A DNA stretch of 64,000 nt from contig NZ_BJHV01000002.1 in assembly GCF_005405925.1 (NCBI RefSeq), positions 62,001-126,000 of the forward strand, in the 5' to 3' direction. Below, in pieces: positions 47,298-55,757 of this stretch. The position numbers were made by a program, and so were the translations under genes. The stretch is from Streptomyces antimycoticus. GTDB lineage: Bacteria > Actinomycetota > Actinomycetes > Streptomycetales > Streptomycetaceae. The notes below the pieces were generated by a model. It searched no databases, was not told where the DNA came from, and saw only the letters and a list, made by a program, of their open reading frames with translations. Within the stretch, counting starts at the first letter, position 1, and every line of letters begins with the position of its first letter.

Positions 47298-48372
47298 TTG
47301 ACGCTCCCTCAGGTGTCTGCCCATCGCTGCTGCGGTCAGTTGTGGATGGCGATGGTGCTGGTCATGCAGACCTATGCAGCGTTCTGGGACTCGCTGGTGT
47401 TCGACGGGATCGACGCTGTGGACGTCGAGGCGGTTACGGCCGCGTTCGGCACGGCCGAGGTGGTGGCGAGAGGCCGCGCGGCCGGGGCGGCTTGTCCGGA
47501 CTGCGGCCGCTTTTCGGACCGGGTCCACGACCGTTACCAGCGCACGCTGAAGGACCTTCCGCTCGCTGGGCAGGGCTTTGTGATCCGGCTGACGGTCCGA
47601 CGCTTCATCTGCGGGTCGGCGGACTGCCCGCGCCGAACGTTCGCTGAGCCGTTCTCGCGGCTGGCCGCCCCGCACGCACGGTTCACCACGCGGCTCAACG
47701 CCGCCCTGGAGCGAGTTGGGCTCGCGCTGGCCGGGCGGGCCGGCGCCCGGCTGGCTGCCCAGTTGGGATCCGGCGCGGGACGGATGACCTTGTTACGCAG
47801 GGTCATGGCACGGCCCGATCCAGAGTTCAGCACACCGCGCATGCTGGGCGTGGACGACTTCGCGATCCGTCGCGGCCAGACCTATTCCACCGTCTTGACC
47901 AGCGTCGAAGACCATCGCGTGGTCGATGTGCTCCCGACCCGTGAAGCCGGGCCGCTGGCCGCCTGGCTGATCCGCCACCCCGGCGTGGAGATCATCTGCC
48001 GGGACCGGGCGGGCGCCTACGCCGAGGGTGCCCGCCGCGGTGCCCCCGACGCTCTGCAGGTCGCCGACCGATTCCATCTATGGCAGGGCCTCGGTCGAGC
48101 CGTGGAGACCTGCGTCGCTGCCCATCGCGACTGCCTGCGCAATTCGTCGCCCAGCGGCATGTTGCCGGAGGCCACCCGACTGGCTTCCGGCAGGCCGCAG
48201 GACGACTCGGTGCCCGCCGGTCGGCGGGCGGAGCGGAAGAAGGCCGCACACGCCCTGGTCCACGAGCTCCTTGCCCAAGGTCACTCACGCCGGGCGATCG
48301 CCCGGCACCTGGGCTGGGGCCTCAACACCGTGCTCCAGTACGCGAACGCCGCCCGCTGGCAGGACACAATCC
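47298..48372 (+). pseudogene. ISL3-family transposase, 5' part, split by the Tn3 element
   Basis: Reads as an ISL3 transposase: zinc ribbon ACPDCGRFSDRVHDRYQRTL with a second pair FICGSADCPRRTF, then the DDE domain (MLGVDDFAIRRGQTYSTVLT, VEIICRDRAGAYAEGARRGA, VADRFHLWQGL) and the C-terminal helices HALVHELLAQGHSRRAIARH, NTVLQYANAARWQDTI. The frame is cut at 48372 by the transposon and continues at 55666. The true start may be an internal ATG near 47343. Confidence 0.85.
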
Positions 48373-48408
48373 GGGGTGCCGGTAAGAACGCTGTCACCAG
48401 CCGCAAAC
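48373..48408 (+). repeat. Left terminal inverted repeat
   Basis: Thirty-six bases starting GGGGTGCCGGTAAGAACG and ending in CCGCAAAC; perfect reverse complement of 55625-55660. Confidence 0.95.
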
Positions 48409-48415
48409 CGCTGCT

Positions 48416-49104
48416 CTACTCCGCCGGCTTCAGGGGTCGGGGCAGTTCGGCTGCGGCTGTCGCCTCGGCGAGCGCGACCCGCCCGCCCTTCAGCTCGGGC
48501 ACGTACTTGTAGATCGTGTTCCTGCTGACGCCCAGGAGCTTACGATGGACGTGACGGTGTTCCCTGGGCGGGTGAGCAGGTCCCGGGCGTGACGCACCTG
48601 TTCCTCGGTCATGGCCGGCGGGCGGCCCAGCCGGGCGCCGCGGGCGCGGGCGGCGTCCAGGCCCTCGTTGGTGCCCTGCACGATGAGTTCCCGGATGAAC
48701 TCCGCGAGTGCGGCGAACACATGGAATACCAGGCGCCCGCCCGGCGTGGTGGTGTCGAGGGCCTCGTGTAGCGAGGTGAAGCCGACGCCGCGCTTGCGCA
48801 GGCCGGAGACGATCGCGATGAGGTCCTGGATGGAGCGGCCGAGCCGGTCCAGGGAAGGGACGACGAGGGTGTCTCCTTCGCGGAGGTAGTCGAGCGCCTT
48901 CCACAGTTCCTCGCGCTCGGCGTTCTTGCCGGACTTCTTGTCGGCGAAGATCCGGATGCAGCCTGCTTCGGTGAGTGCGTGGATCTGCCGGTCGAGCAAC
49001 TGTCCCTTCGTCGATACGCGGGCGTACCCCACGAGGGCGCCGGTCCGTATGGTGGGGACGGGGGTGAGGAGATCGGCGGTGTCGTCGTCGGAAGGCGTCT
49101 GCAC
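48416..49104 (-). CDS. tnpR: Serine resolvase of the transposon, frameshifted near the end
   Basis: From GTG 49104 the protein has the catalytic serine region VGYARVSTKGQLLDRQIHAL, then IFADKKSGKNAEREELWKAL, LVVPSLDRLGRSIQDLIAIV and the E-helix LVFHVFAALAEFIRELIVQG. Near 48545 a base is missing: the current frame ends with a nonsense tail at 48490, but the neighbouring frame supplies the missing Hin-type HTH (LLGVSRNTIYKYVPELKGGR) and ends at 48416. It resolves the cointegrate after Tn3 transposition. Not a clear ribosome-binding site; TACGAT lies just upstream. Confidence 0.8.
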
Positions 49105-49185
49105 CCGCGAGATCGTACAGAAAAGGGTGCTGCTGAAGTTCTTGAGCACGCCGACTTTCTGACACCGTTTTACGAGCATGATCCG
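49105..49185. other. Candidate res site
   Basis: Between resolvase and cargo gene, imperfect inverted arms GTACAGAAA (near 49115) and TTTCTGACA (near 49152) are spaced like resolvase-binding subsites. Position next to tnpR is expected for res, but the three-subsite structure was not fully resolved. Confidence 0.35.
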
Positions 49186-49227
49186 GCGCCGGTCCGGCCG
49201 CGAACCCCGGTTAATTGATCTTGCTCA

Positions 49228-52098
49228 TCAATCGGTCGATTGCTGAACGCCACTTGCCTCCCGCTGCCACCAGGCAAGGTTGTCTCGGACATCGAGGGTG
49301 TGGGGGTGGTCCGGGCCGAAGATCCGCTCATGGTCGACCAGCAGCTCCGCGTAGGCGGCGGCGGCAACAGCCGCGTCCCCGGCTTCCCCTCGCCACCAGG
49401 CAAGGTCGTTACGGGTGGCGAGAGTCTGAGGGTGGTCAGGGCCAAGGACCCGCTCCCGATCAGACAGCAGCTCGGCGAACGCCGTCGCCGCGTCAACCGT
49501 GTCCCCAGCTTCCCCTCGCCACAACGCCAGATTGGCTCGGACGGTGAGGGTGTGGGGGTGGTCCGGGCCGAAGATCCGCTCATGGTCGACCAGCAGCTCC
49601 GCGAACGCAGCGACAGCGCCAGCTGTGTCCCCCGCCGCTCCCCGCCACCAGGCAAGGTCGTTACGGGTGGCGAGGGTGTCGGGGTGGTCCGGTCCCAGCA
49701 GCCTCAGGTAGTCGGCCAACAGCTCCTCCAAGGTGGTGACCGTGCCGGCCGCGTCTCCCGCCTGACCTCGCCAAACAGCGAGTTTGGCCTTGGTAGCGAG
49801 GGTCTCGGGGTGGTCGGGGCCGAGGATCCGCTCCTGATCGAGCAGCAGCTCCGCGAACGCAGCGACAGCGCCAGCTGTGTCCCCCGCCGCTCCCCGCCAC
49901 CAGGCAAGGTTGGCTCGGGTTAGGAGGGTGTCGGGGTGGTCGGGGTCCAGCAGCCTCAGGTAGTCGGCCAACAGCTCCTCCAAGGTGGTGACCGTGCCGG
50001 CCGCGTCTCCCGCCTGACCTCGCCAAACAGCGAGATTTACCTTGATAGCGAGGGTCTCGGGGTGATCCGGACCCAGCACCCGTTCTTGATCAAGCAGCAA
50101 CTCCGCGCACGCCATTGCCGCGCCAGCCGCGTCCCCGGCTTCCCCTCGCCACCAGGCAAGGGCGAGACGGGTGGCGAGAGTCTGGGGGTGGTCGGGGCCG
50201 AGGATCCGCTCCTGGTCGAGCAGCAGCTCCGCGAACGCAGCGACAGCGCCAGCCGAGTCCCCCGCCCTTCCCCGAGAGTAGGCAAGGTTGTTCCTGGTGG
50301 TGAGGGTGTTGGGGTGGTCGGGGCCGAGGATCCGCTCCTGGTCGAGCAACAGCTCCGCGAACGCTGTCGTGGCGCCGACCACGTCCCCCATCCGCCCACG
50401 CCACCGAACTAGGTTGGTCCTGGTGGTGAGGGTCTGGGGATGGTCGGGTCCGAGAATCCGTTCCCGATCAAGCAGCAGCTCCGCGCACGCCGTCACCGCG
50501 CCGACCACGTCCCCCGCCTCTCCCCGAAAGAGAGCAAGGTCGTTGCGGGCGGCGAGGACGTCGGGGTGATCCGGGCCCAGGCGGTTGCCTGCGGTGTCGA
50601 CCAAGTGCTGGAAGTGCTCCAGGGCGGCCGCGAGCTGGCCAAAATTTCCGAGGCTCTGGCCCATACAGAAGAGGACTACATGCACGCCGTCAGCGGAGTG
50701 GTAGAGGAAGTCCTCGGCGTGTTGGGTGAGCGCGTTTACGTTGTCGCGCAGGGACCGCGCCAGAGCGGTGTCGTGTCCAGTGTCGGGCCACGCATCGAAG
50801 AGGGCATCAGCCGCGGCGCGGGCCAGAACGTCAAGTGCTGGGCTGGTGAAGGCTTCCAGGGTGGCGCGTTGGATGAGCTGGTGAATGCGCATTGAGTGCT
50901 GCGGAGACTCGGGATCGTGGTCGATGAGGCTCAGACGGTGCAGAGCACGGAGTGCGCCCCAGACGTCCAGCTCCGTCACTTCATCCACGGTGCTCTGCTC
51001 GGCTGCTGCCTGGGTACGGTACTGAGCAAGATAGGTTCGGGCAGGCTCACTGGTCAGAACGCTCTGGGGAATGCCGTTCGGATCCAGCATGGCGGCGAGC
51101 TGAAGCGTGGGGCGGGCGAGGCCGGCGGGGTTGAGGTTGTCAGCGCGTTCGATCGACAGCGACCAGGTAGCGCTCACGGTGGTGTCCTGGTCGTCTGGCA
51201 GCATGCCGAGCTCGGGCAGCATGCTGGCGAGGCTGGTGGCGCGGTCAGCGAGTCGACGGCGGTAGCTGGGGCACTGCCGGTGGGTACATCGCGAGCAGCC
51301 GACGGGAATATCGGCATCGACGATGTAGGTAGCAGCCTGCGAGAGGGCTAGCGGCAGGTAGCCAAGGTCCTGGGCCAACGCACGGATTTCGTCTGTGTCA
51401 TCGTGCCGTCCGTGTTCGGCCAGGAAGTCAACCAGATAGGCGACTGCCTGATCCGGAGTGAAAACCCCGAGGTCAATCCGATGACCAGGTAGAGCGGCAT
51501 CGCGGCGCCGCGTCGTGACCACCGTGCGGCCGTACGGGCTCTTCGCCGGCCACAACCCGGCCACGTCATCAGGGTCGGCGACATCGTCGAATACGACCAG
51601 CCACCGGCACACGGTCTCGGATCCTGGCGGCTTAGGTTCAAGCCATCTCAGGAACGCATGTGCGGATCGCTCGGGGTCACCAGGTTCGAGGGCAAGGAGT
51701 TCTTCGCCAGCCTGGGCGAATGCGGAGACGATCGCGGAGCGGCTGCTGGCGCTGACCCAGACCAGCACATCCAATTCGCCCCCAATCCACGCCTGCCGCG
51801 CGTAGTGGGCGGCGAACTGGGTCTTGCCGACGCCGCCCGTGCCCCGTAGCACCTGACACAGCACCGCGGTGCCGCTGTTGGTGACCGCAGCCCGCAGTTG
51901 GTCGATCTCGTCTCGTCCCTGGAAGGCCGCAGCTTCGCGGGGAAGGACACCGACCTGGTGCGGCCACGGGACCGGCTCCCGCCCATGCACGTGCACGGTC
52001 GTGATGTCACCGCTGTGGTATCCGCTGATCGATACTCCTGCTGGCCCGGAAGTCGCTTGACCCGTGTCCCGAACCTCGATACCCCGCCGTCCTGCCAT
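49228..52098 (-). CDS. NB-ARC/TPR STAND protein, transposon cargo
   Basis: A 956-residue NLR-like protein. Residues 8-30 carry a Gly/Thr motif (DTGQATSGPAGVSISGYHSG). The NB-ARC ATPase follows: FQGRDEIDQL near 59, P-loop GTGGVGKT at 86-93, WLVVFDDVADPDDVAG near 166, sensor RTVVTTRRRD near 191 and LGYLPLALSQAATYI near 245. A Cys cluster (CSRCTHRQC near 269) and a winged-helix region come next. Residues about 490-949 are eleven tandem 42-residue TPRs with consensus ERILGPDHPQTLATRNNLAW and a repeated RGEAGD linker. STAND proteins of this design are established sensors in prokaryotic defence. Coupled, 27 bases downstream of the small membrane protein. Confidence 0.93.
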   Translation of the reverse strand: MAGRRGIEVRDTGQATSGPAGVSISGYHSGDITTVHVHGREPVPWPHQVGVLPREAAAFQGRDEIDQLRAAVTNSGTAVLCQVLRGTGGVGKTQFAAHYARQAWIGGELDVLVWVSASSRSAIVSAFAQAGEELLALEPGDPERSAHAFLRWLEPKPPGSETVCRWLVVFDDVADPDDVAGLWPAKSPYGRTVVTTRRRDAALPGHRIDLGVFTPDQAVAYLVDFLAEHGRHDDTDEIRALAQDLGYLPLALSQAATYIVDADIPVGCSRCTHRQCPSYRRRLADRATSLASMLPELGMLPDDQDTTVSATWSLSIERADNLNPAGLARPTLQLAAMLDPNGIPQSVLTSEPARTYLAQYRTQAAAEQSTVDEVTELDVWGALRALHRLSLIDHDPESPQHSMRIHQLIQRATLEAFTSPALDVLARAAADALFDAWPDTGHDTALARSLRDNVNALTQHAEDFLYHSADGVHVVLFCMGQSLGNFGQLAAALEHFQHLVDTAGNRLGPDHPDVLAARNDLALFRGEAGDVVGAVTACAELLLDRERILGPDHPQTLTTRTNLVRWRGRMGDVVGATTAFAELLLDQERILGPDHPNTLTTRNNLAYSRGRAGDSAGAVAAFAELLLDQERILGPDHPQTLATRLALAWWRGEAGDAAGAAMACAELLLDQERVLGPDHPETLAIKVNLAVWRGQAGDAAGTVTTLEELLADYLRLLDPDHPDTLLTRANLAWWRGAAGDTAGAVAAFAELLLDQERILGPDHPETLATKAKLAVWRGQAGDAAGTVTTLEELLADYLRLLGPDHPDTLATRNDLAWWRGAAGDTAGAVAAFAELLVDHERIFGPDHPHTLTVRANLALWRGEAGDTVDAATAFAELLSDRERVLGPDHPQTLATRNDLAWWRGEAGDAAVAAAAYAELLVDHERIFGPDHPHTLDVRDNLAWWQREASGVQQSTD

Positions 52099-52125
52099 AC
52101 CGCTCCCCCCTGCCGACGCCCTGGG

Positions 52126-52470
52126 CTACTTCTCGCTGTATCCGCTGATGGCGTCGCCATCTCCGGTCGCTTCTGCATCGCCTGTCCGCTCGACAGTGAC
52201 GGGGCGCGCAGATCCGCTCCCGTGATAACCCGTGACCGCGTTGCCTTTGCCTGCTGTCTTAGCGGTACTGGTTTCGCGAACAACGATGGCTGATTGACTG
52301 GCGCCAGGGAGCGCTGCCCAGATTCCGATGCCTACCGCTGCCACACCTGCGAGAGCGGAGGCCACCGTCGCGATCCGGCTTGCTGTCTCCCACTGCGAGA
52401 CGGCGAACATCCACCCCAGGACAGCGACCACCACGCACGTCGCGACCAACACCACGCGCTTCAAAGTCAT
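52126..52470 (-). CDS. Small membrane protein, cargo partner
   Basis: A 114-residue protein. Two hydrophobic helices lie at residues 5-25 (VVLVATCVVVAVLGWMFAVS) and 32-54 (IATVASALAGVAAVGIGIWA). The C-terminal 55 residues are polar, with AGKGNAVTGYHGSGSARPVT and TGDAEATGDGDAISGYSEK. These SGY/TGY elements resemble the N-terminal element of the following STAND protein. ATG 52470 has no strong ribosome-binding site. It lies between transposase and STAND gene and is read with both. Confidence 0.7.
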   Translation of the reverse strand: MTLKRVVLVATCVVVAVLGWMFAVSQWETASRIATVASALAGVAAVGIGIWAALPGASQSAIVVRETSTAKTAGKGNAVTGYHGSGSARPVTVERTGDAEATGDGDAISGYSEK

Positions 52471-52523
52471 CCCGTCATCGTTGCTCAGGCTGAGTCGCGA
52501 TGGGAGTGCTTTGGCCGAGCCCC

Positions 52524-55500
52524 TCATCTTCCGATGTGCGGGGGGCCATGCACAGTGACGGCAGTGAGGTTCAGGCGGGCGTCCATGTCGAGGTTGACCT
52601 CGCCGTACGGGCGGACGTGGGACCAGAACAACGGGGTCAAGCCGCGCCGATCGGCGGGGGTGAGGAGGTCGGCCCACTCCGGTTCGCCCAGGATGTCCTG
52701 GAGCATCAGGGTGTTCACGAAGACCAGGGCCGACTGCAAAATTCGCAGGCACAAGACGAACATCTCCTGCTCGTCCCGTCGGTTCGAGACGATCTCCCCG
52801 CCCTTGCCGTAGGCGATCACACTGTTGGCGCCGTTGGAGGACTCCATCACGTTCAGGCCCTCCTCGATCTCCCGCTGGAGATCCCGAAGCCGCAGATAGC
52901 GGGCCACGAAGATGGTCTTCTGCGCGCGGCCGACCTCCAGCATCGCCGCGTAGGTGAGGTGGGAGGCGTTGCGGGTGAAGCGGCGCAGGATCGCCTCGGT
53001 CGACGCAGTCCGCGTACGGATCGCGGTCGCATACTTGATCATCTGGTCGTACTGCTGGGCGATGAGTTCCCAGCGGATCGGGCGGGTCAGTGCAGGCGTG
53101 AGCGCCGGGTAGGCGTCCGTCTCGCCGGCCACCGGCCGGTACAACTTGGCCTTGTTGATCCGCTTGATGCGCGGCAGCAGGTCGAAGTTCAGCAGCCTCG
53201 TGATGCCGAACCCGATTTCCGACTGGCCGTGGCTGTCCGTGTAGTTGGCCTCGACGTCCATGGTGGTGCCGTGCCGCATGGCGCCCTCGACCATCGCGGC
53301 GACCTCGGAGGCCGTGCAGTTGATGAGCTGGGAGTGGATGGCCAGGGACTTCTTCTCCACGTGCCAGTAGATGAGCACCCCGCGGCCGCCGTAGCGCGAG
53401 TGCCACTCGGTGAATAGATTCTGGTCGTAGGCGCGCACGTGGGTGGAGTCGGAGGCGACCGCGGTCGAGCCCTGGCCCCACACCTCGGTGCTGCGGGCGG
53501 CGAAGGTGGCGTTCGCGATCTGGATGGCGATGGCGCGGGCGGCCTCGGCGGACAGGTACCGGCGGCGTACGTAGCGCAGTTCGTCCTCGGTGTGGCCGTG
53601 GCCGCCGGAGGCGACGGCCTTGATCCCGGTGTTCGTGCCGTAGGCGTAGATCACCAACAGCAGGCGCTCGGCCAGGACCTCCGCCAAGAGACTGCCGCCT
53701 CCGGAGACCGAGGTGACCGCGTCCAGGCAGCCGGTGCGCAGCACCGCTTCCTTGAGCATGTCGATGAGCGGCACGATGCCCCACCGGCGCTGTACCTCGC
53801 TCTTGATCCTGCGCAGGTTCTTCGGCTCGGGCTGGGCCTCGGCCGGAGTCAGCCGGATCGCCCCGGACTTCCGCTCGGCGATGTCCAGCCAGCTCAAGCG
53901 CGGCATCCCATCGTTCAGCAGCGTCAGCTCGGTGGTCATCTGCTCGCGCAGCTCGTCGATGAAGTCGGCCGCGTCCAGCGGCTTGCGCAGCTCGCGGTAG
54001 TTCTCCTCGCGCCGCTCGGCGAAGTCCTGGGGCAGGTCCTCGTCGGGGTTGCGCCACTTATCGGCGCCGACCACCCAGACCTCCTTGCACTTGAGCTGGT
54101 CGCGCAGGGCCTGGAAGGCGACGACCTCGTAGACCATGCGCACCACCCGGCGTCGGCCCCGCTTGTCGGTGCGGTGGACGACCTCGGCCCAGTCCCCGCC
54201 CATCGCCTTGTGCACCGGCACGGTCTCGCCCAGCGGGTAGTACGTGGTGTTGCCCGCCGCCGCGTACCGGGCCACCAGCGCCAGCGCCTCGATCACCGGC
54301 CGGTGGGTGTGGTTGGACGAGCGGAACTCCAGCACGTCCAGCAGCTTGATCAGCCCGCGCCGGTAGTGGTTGGTGTACGACGCCTTCAACGTGGTCTGCA
54401 CCGTGCGCCGGTAGACCGGTCCGCGGGTCTTGAACTCGTGCACCAGCTCCCGCAGCGTCTGCTCACCGCCGGACACCGCCGGGTAGACGACCTCGCGGAC
54501 CGTGCCCTCCGGCTCACCGATTGACGCCTCGGCGAGCTTGAAGAGGATGTTCTCCTTGCCCGACACCTTCTTGAACGCGTTGACCAGCTGCTCGGTGACC
54601 TTCTTCTCCGCCCGCGCCCCGATCCGGTGCACCGTGGAGATCAGCAGCTCCACCAGCGTGTCCGTGATCTCCCGCTCCCGCTCGTGCAACAGCGCGGCCA
54701 GCAGCGTCACCCGCAGCGGCAATGGGTGCGTCCGCAGATGGGACGGGGATTCGACCGCGGCCCGCGCCCGCCACCCGGCCGCCACCTTCGGCGCGACATC
54801 GGAGAACAGGTCTGCCGGCAACCCGACCGCCCTCACCGCGAGCAGCTTGTCGATCTCGGTGAGCATCGTCTCCAGACTCACATTGCCCGGAGCCTCCTTG
54901 ATCTTCCCCAGGACCGGCGGGCCGTCCTCGCCCTCACCGGCACCGGCTTCACCGAGTACGGCGTCGTCCTCCTGGACGGCGCCCGCGACCAGGGCGACTC
55001 CGCTCCGTGCTCTCCACCGTGAGCCACGCCGAGATCCTCGCCGTCAGAGTCTCCTCGGCCACGCGCAGCGCGGCGCCCACGATCCGGTCGCACCGCCCCG
55101 GAGTCGGCGGCTCGATGCTCTCCGCGCGGCAGCGAGCGAGCAGTTCCACCTGTACCTGCTCTGGCCGCCGCTCCTTGCACGCGACGTGCTCGGCGAGCCA
55201 GCCGGTCAGCTTGTCCGCGTCCGCAACGCTGCACTCCCGAAAGCCCAGGTGCCCTCGGATCTGGGCGCGGTGGTACTCGACCGTCCGGCCGCTCCACTCG
55301 TACGCGTCCAGTTCGGCGGCGGGTACCTGTACCTGCCGGGCGACGAACTCCACTACCTCGCCCGGCAACTCGAACCGGCCCCGAGGAAACCGGCCGTGCT
55401 GCGTATAGAACTTCAGCAACACGGCGAAGCCCAGCCGCGTCGCACCGCGCTTGCCGGACACAAGCGCCTGCTCGTCCTTCAACAGCGTCCAGTGCTCGAC

Positions 55501-55533
55501 CAGGTCGTCCAGGTCCAAAGGGGTACGGGCCAC
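52524..55533 (-). CDS. tnpA: Tn3-family transposase, split by one frameshift
   Basis: The N-terminal DUF4158 part starts at ATG 55533 (MARTPLDLDDLVEHWTLLKD) and runs to about 55010 (ISAWLTVESTER), after which this frame decays and ends at 54949. One frame over, VALVAGAVQEDDAVLGEAGA continues into the 785-codon frame down to 52524. That part has the Tn3 DDE catalytic core (VASDSTHVRAYDQNLFTEWH, YTDSHGQSEIGFGITRLLNF, ETDAYPALTPALTRPI and the terminal acidic residue region SSNGANSVIAYGKGGEIVSN). Full length would be about 1000 residues, normal for the family. Confidence 0.88.
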
Positions 55534-55624
55534 GGTCGTCGATCGTCCTCTCGGGGCCTCGCCCCGCGCAGCTGTACGACCCCGGACTCACCCACACGGG
55601 TGACGCTCTCGCAAGATCACCGCC

Positions 55625-55660
55625 GTTTGCGGCTGGTGACAGCGTTCTTACCGGCACCCC
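55625..55660 (-). repeat. Right terminal inverted repeat
   Basis: Thirty-six bases ending in GGCACCCC, the exact reverse complement of 48373-48408. Confidence 0.95.
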
Positions 55661-55757
55661 AATCCGCGAGAACCGGCCCCGGCCCAGCAGACTGGACCCC
55701 TACAAGCCCTACCTGGAGCGGCGATTCGCCGAGGGATGCACCAGCGTCACGCGGTAG
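55661..55757 (+). pseudogene. ISL3 transposase, 3' part
   Basis: After the second AATCC the sequence encodes RENRPRPSRLDPYKPYLERR then FAEGCTSVTR and a TAG at 55755-55757. Joined to 48372 this continues the ISL3 frame without error, and PYKPYL is a family motif. The last part of the transposase is missing, so the IS was already truncated or the end was lost later. Confidence 0.8.

What the first reader, a model, noticed from the sequence alone, without database searches (positions are those of the whole stretch)
48373..55660. A Tn3-family transposon that carries an NLR-like STAND protein and a small membrane protein as its cargo
Seen: perfect 36-base inverted repeats, an AATCC duplication, transposase and resolvase at the two sides of two non-transposition genes, all on one strand. 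One cargo gene encodes an NB-ARC ATPase with eleven TPRs, the other a two-span membrane protein. Known: NB-ARC/TPR proteins act as sensors in prokaryotic immunity, and Tn3 elements usually carry resistance or catabolic cargo. Inference: this is a mobile defence or signalling unit that spreads as a discrete transposon.
Basis: partly seen in the sequence, partly recalled or inferred. Interest (0 to 1): 0.92.

Follow-up and report, generated by a model that had tools for sequence, protein, structure and literature searches.

The report
Transposon carrying receptor and membrane effector
A small bacterial jumping gene carries two neighbouring genes, an NLR-type receptor and a tiny membrane protein, that share the same short repeat, as in the amyloid-based cell-death switches of fungi; related transposons in other Streptomyces carry the same kind of pair, so this looks like a mobile immune switch, not yet tested in the laboratory.

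Summary
Window 48373-55660 is a Tn3-family transposon with perfect 36-bp inverted repeats and an AATCC duplication, inserted in an ISL3-type transposase gene. (1) In this copy tnpA and tnpR are frame-broken, while both cargo genes are open. (2) The cargo genes share a repeat: two copies in the tail of the 114-aa two-helix membrane protein, one at the N-terminus of the NB-ARC/11-TPR protein. That is the layout of NLR/effector amyloid-signalling pairs (HET-S/NWD2; bacterial BASS/BELL). A profile of effector tails finds, among 8,042 ORFs of 50 loci, 24 of 51 downstream receptors and three other ORFs. Type-A effectors elsewhere precede unrelated proteins bearing the same 24-35-aa motif. The same inverted repeat occurs in 39 of 392 Streptomyces genomes with varied cargo; the pair is the cargo of 3 of 14 elements of at least 3.5 kb, one (3.6 kb) without recognisable transposase or resolvase. 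The pair is mostly found outside this transposon (near-full-length effector in 53 of 295 genomes; repeats at 3 of 43 loci examined). Amyloid formation, toxicity and phage defence are inferred, not shown; a general test of pair specificity was negative.

The parts
48368..48372 (.). target-site duplication AATCC (left)
48373..48408 (+). 36-bp terminal inverted repeat, left
48490..49179 (-). tnpR-like serine resolvase; a frame shift near 48543 against relatives replaces the usual C-terminus
   Evidence: Pfam Resolvase 6e-42; alignment with L068; about 254-aa ORFs in L049, L056, L068
49228..52098 (-). receptor: NB-ARC STAND ATPase with 11 TPRs, 956 aa, open
51985..52080 (-). receptor N-terminal signalling motif, one copy (residues 7-38)
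50749..51963 (-). NB-ARC/STAND ATPase part (residues about 46-450)
49255..50679 (-). TPR sensor array (residues 474-948)
52126..52470 (-). effector: 114-aa protein, two membrane helices (about 3-29 and 35-53), tail predicted to be cytosolic
52129..52293 (-). effector C-terminal tail with two copies of the signalling motif (residues 60-114)
52524..55533 (-). tnpA (Tn3 family), split by a frame shift near 54999 into ORFs 54949-55533 and 52524-54881
55625..55660 (-). 36-bp terminal inverted repeat, right
55661..55665 (.). target-site duplication AATCC (right)
47298..48372 (+). interrupted target gene, ISL3-type transposase, 5' part
   Evidence: Pfam DDE_Tnp_ISL3 1e-14; frame resumes after the element
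55666..55757 (+). interrupted target gene, 3' continuation

Best explanation
A Tn3-family transposon whose cargo is a two-gene receptor-effector switch. Shown: the transposon, the pair, the shared repeat motif, and recurrence of such pairs in other copies of the transposon. Inferred: the TPR array senses an invader or stress signal; the NB-ARC ATPase oligomerises; the clustered N-terminal motifs form a nucleus; this templates the two-repeat tails of the small membrane protein, probably as a beta-solenoid amyloid as in NWD2 to HET-S; and the tail assembly turns the two-helix hairpins into a membrane-disrupting complex that stops or kills the hypha. The transposon spreads the switch as a unit between replicons. 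This copy can probably move only if transposase is supplied in trans.
For: Motif in both proteins: effector tail against receptor N-terminus scores 49 against 24.6 +/- 5.0 for shuffles, 13 of 20,000 as high; of the receptor's 60-aa stretches the best are those starting at residues 1-21. Tail-only HMM built from nine effectors and no receptor: among 8,042 ORFs of 50 loci, the non-effector matches at i-E < 0.002 are 24 of 51 downstream receptors, near the start of the ORF, plus three others: a receptor N-terminus in a frame-shifted locus (L112) and the C-termini of two other proteins (L117, L119). Receptor-side pattern in 43 of 50 pairs against 275 of 3,067 background ORFs (one of the 43, L043, is a spurious hit in a broken gene). 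Motif moves with the effector: L109 and L114 have type-A effectors (81%, 75% identical) followed by proteins that match this receptor only over 24 aa (83%, 7e-7) and 35 aa (80%, 4e-11). Same pair within the same repeats: L059, L068 with perfect duplications, L041 with a near-perfect one. Type-A effector under purifying selection, dN/dS 0.012/0.23 and 0.022/0.166. Receptor TPRs differ more than its ATPase: against L001, motif 100%, ATPase 85%, TPR 61%. N-terminal lysine and arginine and two hydrophobic stretches place the tail in the cytosol by the positive-inside rule (rule recalled). BELL/BASS and HET-S/NWD2 precedents: passages of PMC7889193, PMC9815663, PMC4344463.
Against: The tail HMM does not find the window's own receptor at i-E < 0.05; its support is pairwise only. 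27 of 51 downstream ORFs are not found by the tail HMM at that level. Effector tails do not match their own receptor better than other receptors in an all-against-all test (44 pairs, mean Z -0.01, p 0.55; 7 pairs with a downstream ORF under 400 aa were left out), so general pair specificity is not shown. Type-B effectors show weak constraint: dN/dS about 0.3 to 0.9 in ten comparisons. No amyloid test; the AlphaFold2 effector model is poor (mean pLDDT 51). The alanine/glycine-rich motif differs from the hydrophobic HET-s core. No phage link; the effector protein has no match in 50,697 phage records.
Confidence: 0.57

Rival explanations
1. Passenger genes only: the transposon picked up a common Streptomyces gene pair by chance and the pair gives no mobile defence.
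For: The repeats bound many unrelated cargoes; the pair is common outside the element, with a near-full-length effector match in 53 of 295 genomes; this copy has broken tnpA and tnpR; type-B effectors show weak constraint.
Against: 3 of 14 repeat-bounded elements of at least 3.5 kb carry the pair although genomes with a match hold only 1-5 matches; two well-separated effector types are on the transposon; the four repeat-bounded copies (window, L041, L059, L068) keep long open cargo genes although tnpA and tnpR look intact only in L068.
Confidence: 0.2
2. The receptor belongs to the FxSxx-COOH peptide system and acts as its TPR regulator, not as an NLR immune sensor.
For: NCBIfam FxSxx_TPR matches the receptor above its cut-off (437.8 against 300 bits).
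Against: The best stretch is only the ATPase part (53-445, profile 2-359 of 830); the coding stretches named here leave no room in the element for a radical SAM or metallopeptidase gene, though peptide ORFs under 80 aa were not listed; the same effector family also pairs with NACHT receptors (L135, and L132 just under Pfam's cut-off).
Confidence: 0.08
3. The pair is an addiction (toxin-antitoxin-like) module: the receptor restrains a toxic small membrane protein and stabilises the transposon or plasmid.
For: Small hydrophobic protein beside a large partner on mobile DNA; a 3.6-kb copy without transposase persists.
Against: Receptor is far larger than usual antitoxins (recalled); sensor divergence and other receptor bodies behind the same motif fit a sensor better; most loci examined show no trace of this transposon.
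Confidence: 0.12
4. The shared repeat is a non-amyloid protein-protein docking motif, or a motif that brings the receptor to the membrane; signalling occurs without prion-like templating.
For: Low-hydrophobicity repeats; poor structure model; no pair specificity in the all-against-all test.
Against: Repeat copies in both partners, at the receptor N-terminus and effector C-terminus, match the amyloid-signalling layout.
Confidence: 0.3

Closest known systems
BASS/BELL-NLR amyloid-signalling gene pairs of filamentous bacteria (Dyrka et al. 2020, not seen itself; seen through passages of PMC7889193, PMC9815663, PMC8086366)
   Same: Adjacent genes; motif at the receptor N-terminus and at the C-terminus of a small effector with a membrane helix; actinobacteria
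   Different: Effector here looks like a bare two-helix hairpin plus two repeats; whether the motif is one of BASS1-10 could not be checked; here the pair sits on a Tn3 transposon
HET-S/NWD2 of Podospora anserina (passages of PMC4344463)
   Same: One motif copy (r0) in the receptor, two copies (r1, r2) in the effector; adjacent genes; variable 42-aa repeats in the sensor
   Different: Fungal, WD40 sensor, HET-S pore-forming domain, different motif sequence
Tn4556 of Streptomyces (passages of PMC6403206)
   Same: Class II transposon of similar size (6,625 bp) with passenger genes between tnpA and a recombinase gene; 38-bp inverted repeats
   Different: Passengers are a methyltransferase and an isoprenyl diphosphate transferase; recombinase is of the phage-integrase (tyrosine) type; its sequence was not compared here
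FxSxx-COOH system TPR protein (NCBIfam NF040586)
   Same: Homologous NB-ARC/TPR protein
   Different: No processing-enzyme gene seen in the element
Starship transposons associated with NLR genes in fungi (Gluck-Thaler 2022, as cited in PMC9815663)
   Same: A transposon as carrier of NLR genes
   Different: Giant fungal elements with unrelated transposition enzymes (recalled)

Membership tests
Tn3-family transposon | Tn3 DDE transposase (PF01526) | tested here: met
   2e-119; NCBIfam Tn3 608 bits against cut-off 500; gene frame-broken in this copy
Tn3-family transposon | about 38-bp terminal inverted repeats and 5-bp target duplication | tested here: met
   36 bp perfect, AATCC
Tn3-family transposon | resolvase and res site | tested here: inconclusive
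   Resolvase present but frame-shifted; res site not sought
BASS-type amyloid-signalling NLR pair | NLR gene next to a small effector gene | tested here: met
   27 bp apart, same strand; a downstream ORF of 400 aa or more in 44 of 51 effector cases
BASS-type amyloid-signalling NLR pair | shared motif at receptor N-terminus and effector C-terminus | tested here: met
   for the window's own pair by pairwise score only
BASS-type amyloid-signalling NLR pair | motif belongs to one of BASS1-10 | not testable with these tools
   The original paper was not among the papers listed and its motif tables were not seen
BASS-type amyloid-signalling NLR pair | effector carries a BELL domain | not testable with these tools
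   No BELL model among the Pfam or NCBIfam matches of the effector; no BELL sequence at hand
BASS-type amyloid-signalling NLR pair | motif forms amyloid and seeds its partner | not testable with these tools
   Needs peptide assays
NLR / STAND ATPase | NB-ARC ATPase with C-terminal repeat sensor | tested here: met
   plant NRC2a/NRC3, about 1e-4; 6mfv, STAND protein with TPR, 4.9e-9
FxSxx-COOH system | FxSxx peptide and processing enzyme nearby | tested here: inconclusive
   None seen among ORFs of 80 aa or more within the element; shorter ORFs and genes outside the element not examined
Known anti-phage defence system (PADLOC) | match to a model | tested here: not met
   Only a weak partial hit, E 0.0013

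The most novel reading that the evidence does not exclude
A mobile, modular amyloid-signalling immune switch: a minimal two-helix effector with two solenoid repeats and a one-repeat NLR travel on a Tn3 transposon, sometimes as a 3.6-kb non-autonomous cassette; sensor, ATPase and the effector/motif set are exchanged independently, so that transposons spread and reshuffle regulated cell death among Streptomyces.
Probability: 0.42. Interest if true: 0.78.

Novelty: new variant of a known kind. Interest (0 to 1): 0.6.

Why it matters
It links bacterial amyloid-signalling-type NLR pairs to a simple, well-understood transposon, giving a direct route by which such switches move between replicons and strains. 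The unrelated proteins that carry the same short motif beside the same effector (L109, L114) make a testable case that the motif alone wires receptor to effector. The 3.6-kb copy without transposase would be a minimal mobile immune cassette.

Tried and rejected
Pair specificity: own receptor against all receptors, 44 pairs, no signal. Tail HMM on the window's own receptor: not found below i-E 0.05. More copies of the repeat in the host genome: none with up to 3 mismatches. Repeats near the 40 fetched effector loci L099-L138: none with up to 6 mismatches. PADLOC: only a weak partial methyltransferase hit. Phage records, effector protein: no match. Plasmids, effector protein: 3 of 72,556 records. 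Ends of the contig: no similarity between its first and last 20 kb. tRNA in window: none. Structure search: the listed matches are mainly TPR proteins; 6mfv, a STAND protein with TPR, is rank 9 in Foldseek (E 4.9e-9, TM-score on the query 0.38). Literature: searches for Tn3 with NLR or defence cargo and for NB-ARC/STAND with Tn3 showed, in the titles and abstract starts listed, no description of this element; the library holds open-licence papers only. Papers: of PMC8086366, PMC12261475, PMC7889193, PMC8195603, PMC6403206, PMC9815663, PMC10907252, PMC7159879 and PMC4344463 I saw passages only; of all others, search listings.

Rows dropped: L101 (same locus as L001) from the trees and the pattern count; 7 of 51 pairs from the specificity test; 19 of 50 receptors from the ATPase tree because the P-loop pattern was not found early enough in the ORF. 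My note says 25 downstream receptors were found by the tail HMM; recounting one search gives 24, which is used here.
Full report
1. What is there. The element runs from 48373 to 55660: two identical 36-bp inverted repeats with AATCC on both outer sides. It interrupts an ISL3-type transposase gene, whose frame resumes across the empty site. No other copy of the repeat (up to 3 mismatches) exists in the 11.17-Mb genome and the reversed control gives none. Order on the minus strand: tnpA, effector, receptor, tnpR. TnpA is Tn3 family (DDE_Tnp_Tn3 2e-119; 608 bits against cut-off 500). Against L042 (tnpA) and L068 (tnpR) this copy has a frame shift in each gene; relatives with one long open tnpA exist. 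The 956-aa receptor and the 114-aa effector are open.

2. The transposon lineage. The repeat, with up to 3 mismatches, occurs in 39 of 392 Streptomyces genomes. From that list I took by eye 21 inward-facing pairs (including the window) and fetched the other 20; 12 of the 21 have identical 5-bp flanks. Fourteen are at least 3.5 kb long (and the window). Their cargo differs: MFS transporters, SDR, epimerase, nitrilase, a helicase-like protein, PNPOx, a pectate-lyase-like protein and unknowns; a shorter pair holds a VanZ-like protein (30 of the 65 unassigned ORFs of 23 elements were scanned against Pfam). Three of the 14 carry the receptor-effector pair: the window, L068 (complete element, GAGTT) and L059 (3.6 kb, no tnpA or tnpR match, CAGTC). 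Three further elements come from plasmid records (L041, L042, L044); of these L041 (S. anulatus, beside cas2e) carries the pair with flanks ATGTT/ATGTC. Decayed copies: L043 (end of a linear plasmid, tnpA fragments) and L001 (S. diastatochromogenes, tnpA and tnpR fragments).

3. The cargo pair. The small protein has two hydrophobic stretches, modelled as helices, and a tail of two similar repeats; the receptor begins with one such repeat. Nine effectors align over their whole length. A profile of that alignment matches in 63 of 295 Streptomyces genomes at E 0.001, of which 53 by my count have a near-full-length match and 10 only a partial one; in the class it matches in 14 of 394 genomes at E 0.0001, 6 of 137 genera. 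I counted 61 near-full-length matches and examined 44 of them (40 fetched loci, L099-L138, with 41 effectors, plus window, L059, L068); three of the remaining 17 are mirror copies at chromosome ends. L101 is the same locus as L001. In one search the tail part of the profile also matched, on its own, a large ORF next to the effector at many loci. Tested separately with a tail-only HMM on 8,042 ORFs of 50 loci (51 effector-downstream pairs): 24 of 51 downstream receptors at i-E < 0.002 and three others, each a receptor N-terminus or a protein C-terminus. Five of the 24 receptors lie beside effectors that were used to build the HMM. Weaker matches (0.006-0.05) are three ORFs in L102 and L113. The window's own receptor was not found by the HMM; pairwise, its N-terminus scores 49 against 24.6 +/- 5.0 for shuffles (13 of 20,000). 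A loose pattern is present in 43 of 50 receptors against 275 of 3,067 other ORFs.

4. The motif as wiring. Type-A effectors (window, L001, L043, L109, L114) and type-B effectors (L041, L059, L068, L099, L100) lie on two sides of a strongly supported split (100/99). In L109 and L114 the downstream protein matches the window's receptor only over 24 and 35 residues at its N-terminus (83% and 80% identity); the L109 protein has no Pfam match (L114 not scanned). So the motif stays with its effector while the receptor body changes. Other receptors in the set are NACHT proteins (L135; L132 marginal) or P-loop/TPR proteins (L117, L119). The window's ATPase groups, with modest support (82/88; 31 receptors in the tree), with the transposon-borne type-B receptors and L100, although its effector is type A; this suggests that effector and motif were exchanged together. 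Against this, the general test of own-pair match over 44 pairs is negative (p 0.55).

5. The sensor. Between the window and L001 the motif is 100%, the ATPase 85% and the TPR array 61% identical; dS rises from 0.15 and 0.30 to 1.64, so the TPR array appears replaced or re-shuffled rather than only faster evolving. L041 and L059 show 81% (ATPase) against 61% (TPR). The repeats are 42 aa long and tandem at the DNA level. In HET-S/NWD2, a receptor with one motif copy beside an effector with two, the 42-aa WD repeats are likewise highly variable (PMC4344463, passages). Selection on the effector: type A is clearly constrained (dN/dS 0.012/0.23, 0.022/0.166), type B only weakly (ratios about 0.3 to 0.9 in ten comparisons).

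6. Mechanism. Shown by sequence: transposon, pair, shared motif, recurrence. Inferred: TPR sensing, NB-ARC oligomerisation, templating of the effector tails, membrane damage, growth arrest or death that limits phage spread. BELL domains in bacteria are described as small domains with a membrane helix, encoded next to NLRs and carrying the motif at the C-terminus (PMC7889193, passage). I estimate 0.85 that the motif connects the two proteins, 0.55 that it does so as an amyloid, and 0.5 that the trigger is phage; these are judgements.

7. Known or new. Tn3 transposons with passenger genes and bacterial NLR/effector amyloid-type pairs are both known. The combination, the copy without transposase, and the change of receptor bodies behind a constant effector-motif set were not described in the titles and abstract starts that my searches listed. 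I therefore call it a new variant of a known kind.

Noticed in passing
L041 9823-11532: In the S. anulatus plasmid the NLR-carrying Tn3 element lies beside cas2e and cas1e of a type I-E CRISPR operon.
   Followed up: no
L117 4199-5155 (+) and L119 13133-13708 (-): A 319-aa and a 192-aa ORF without Pfam match end in the same tail motif at their C-termini; probably further effectors.
   Followed up: partly
L050, L057: Elements with the same inverted repeats carry a phage-integrase-type recombinase gene near one end and no match to the serine resolvase: the recombination module seems exchangeable.
   Followed up: no
[quoted passage not shown] G199, G151 and G254 hold mirror copies at both ends. 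No test of enrichment was run.
   Followed up: no
L111 6719-6817: A 32-aa resolvase remnant (94% identity) just beyond the receptor gene suggests another decayed transposon-borne copy.
   Followed up: no
L063 501-745: Three copies of the repeat within 4.3 kb: a 245-bp inward-facing pair nested at one end of a larger element.
   Followed up: no
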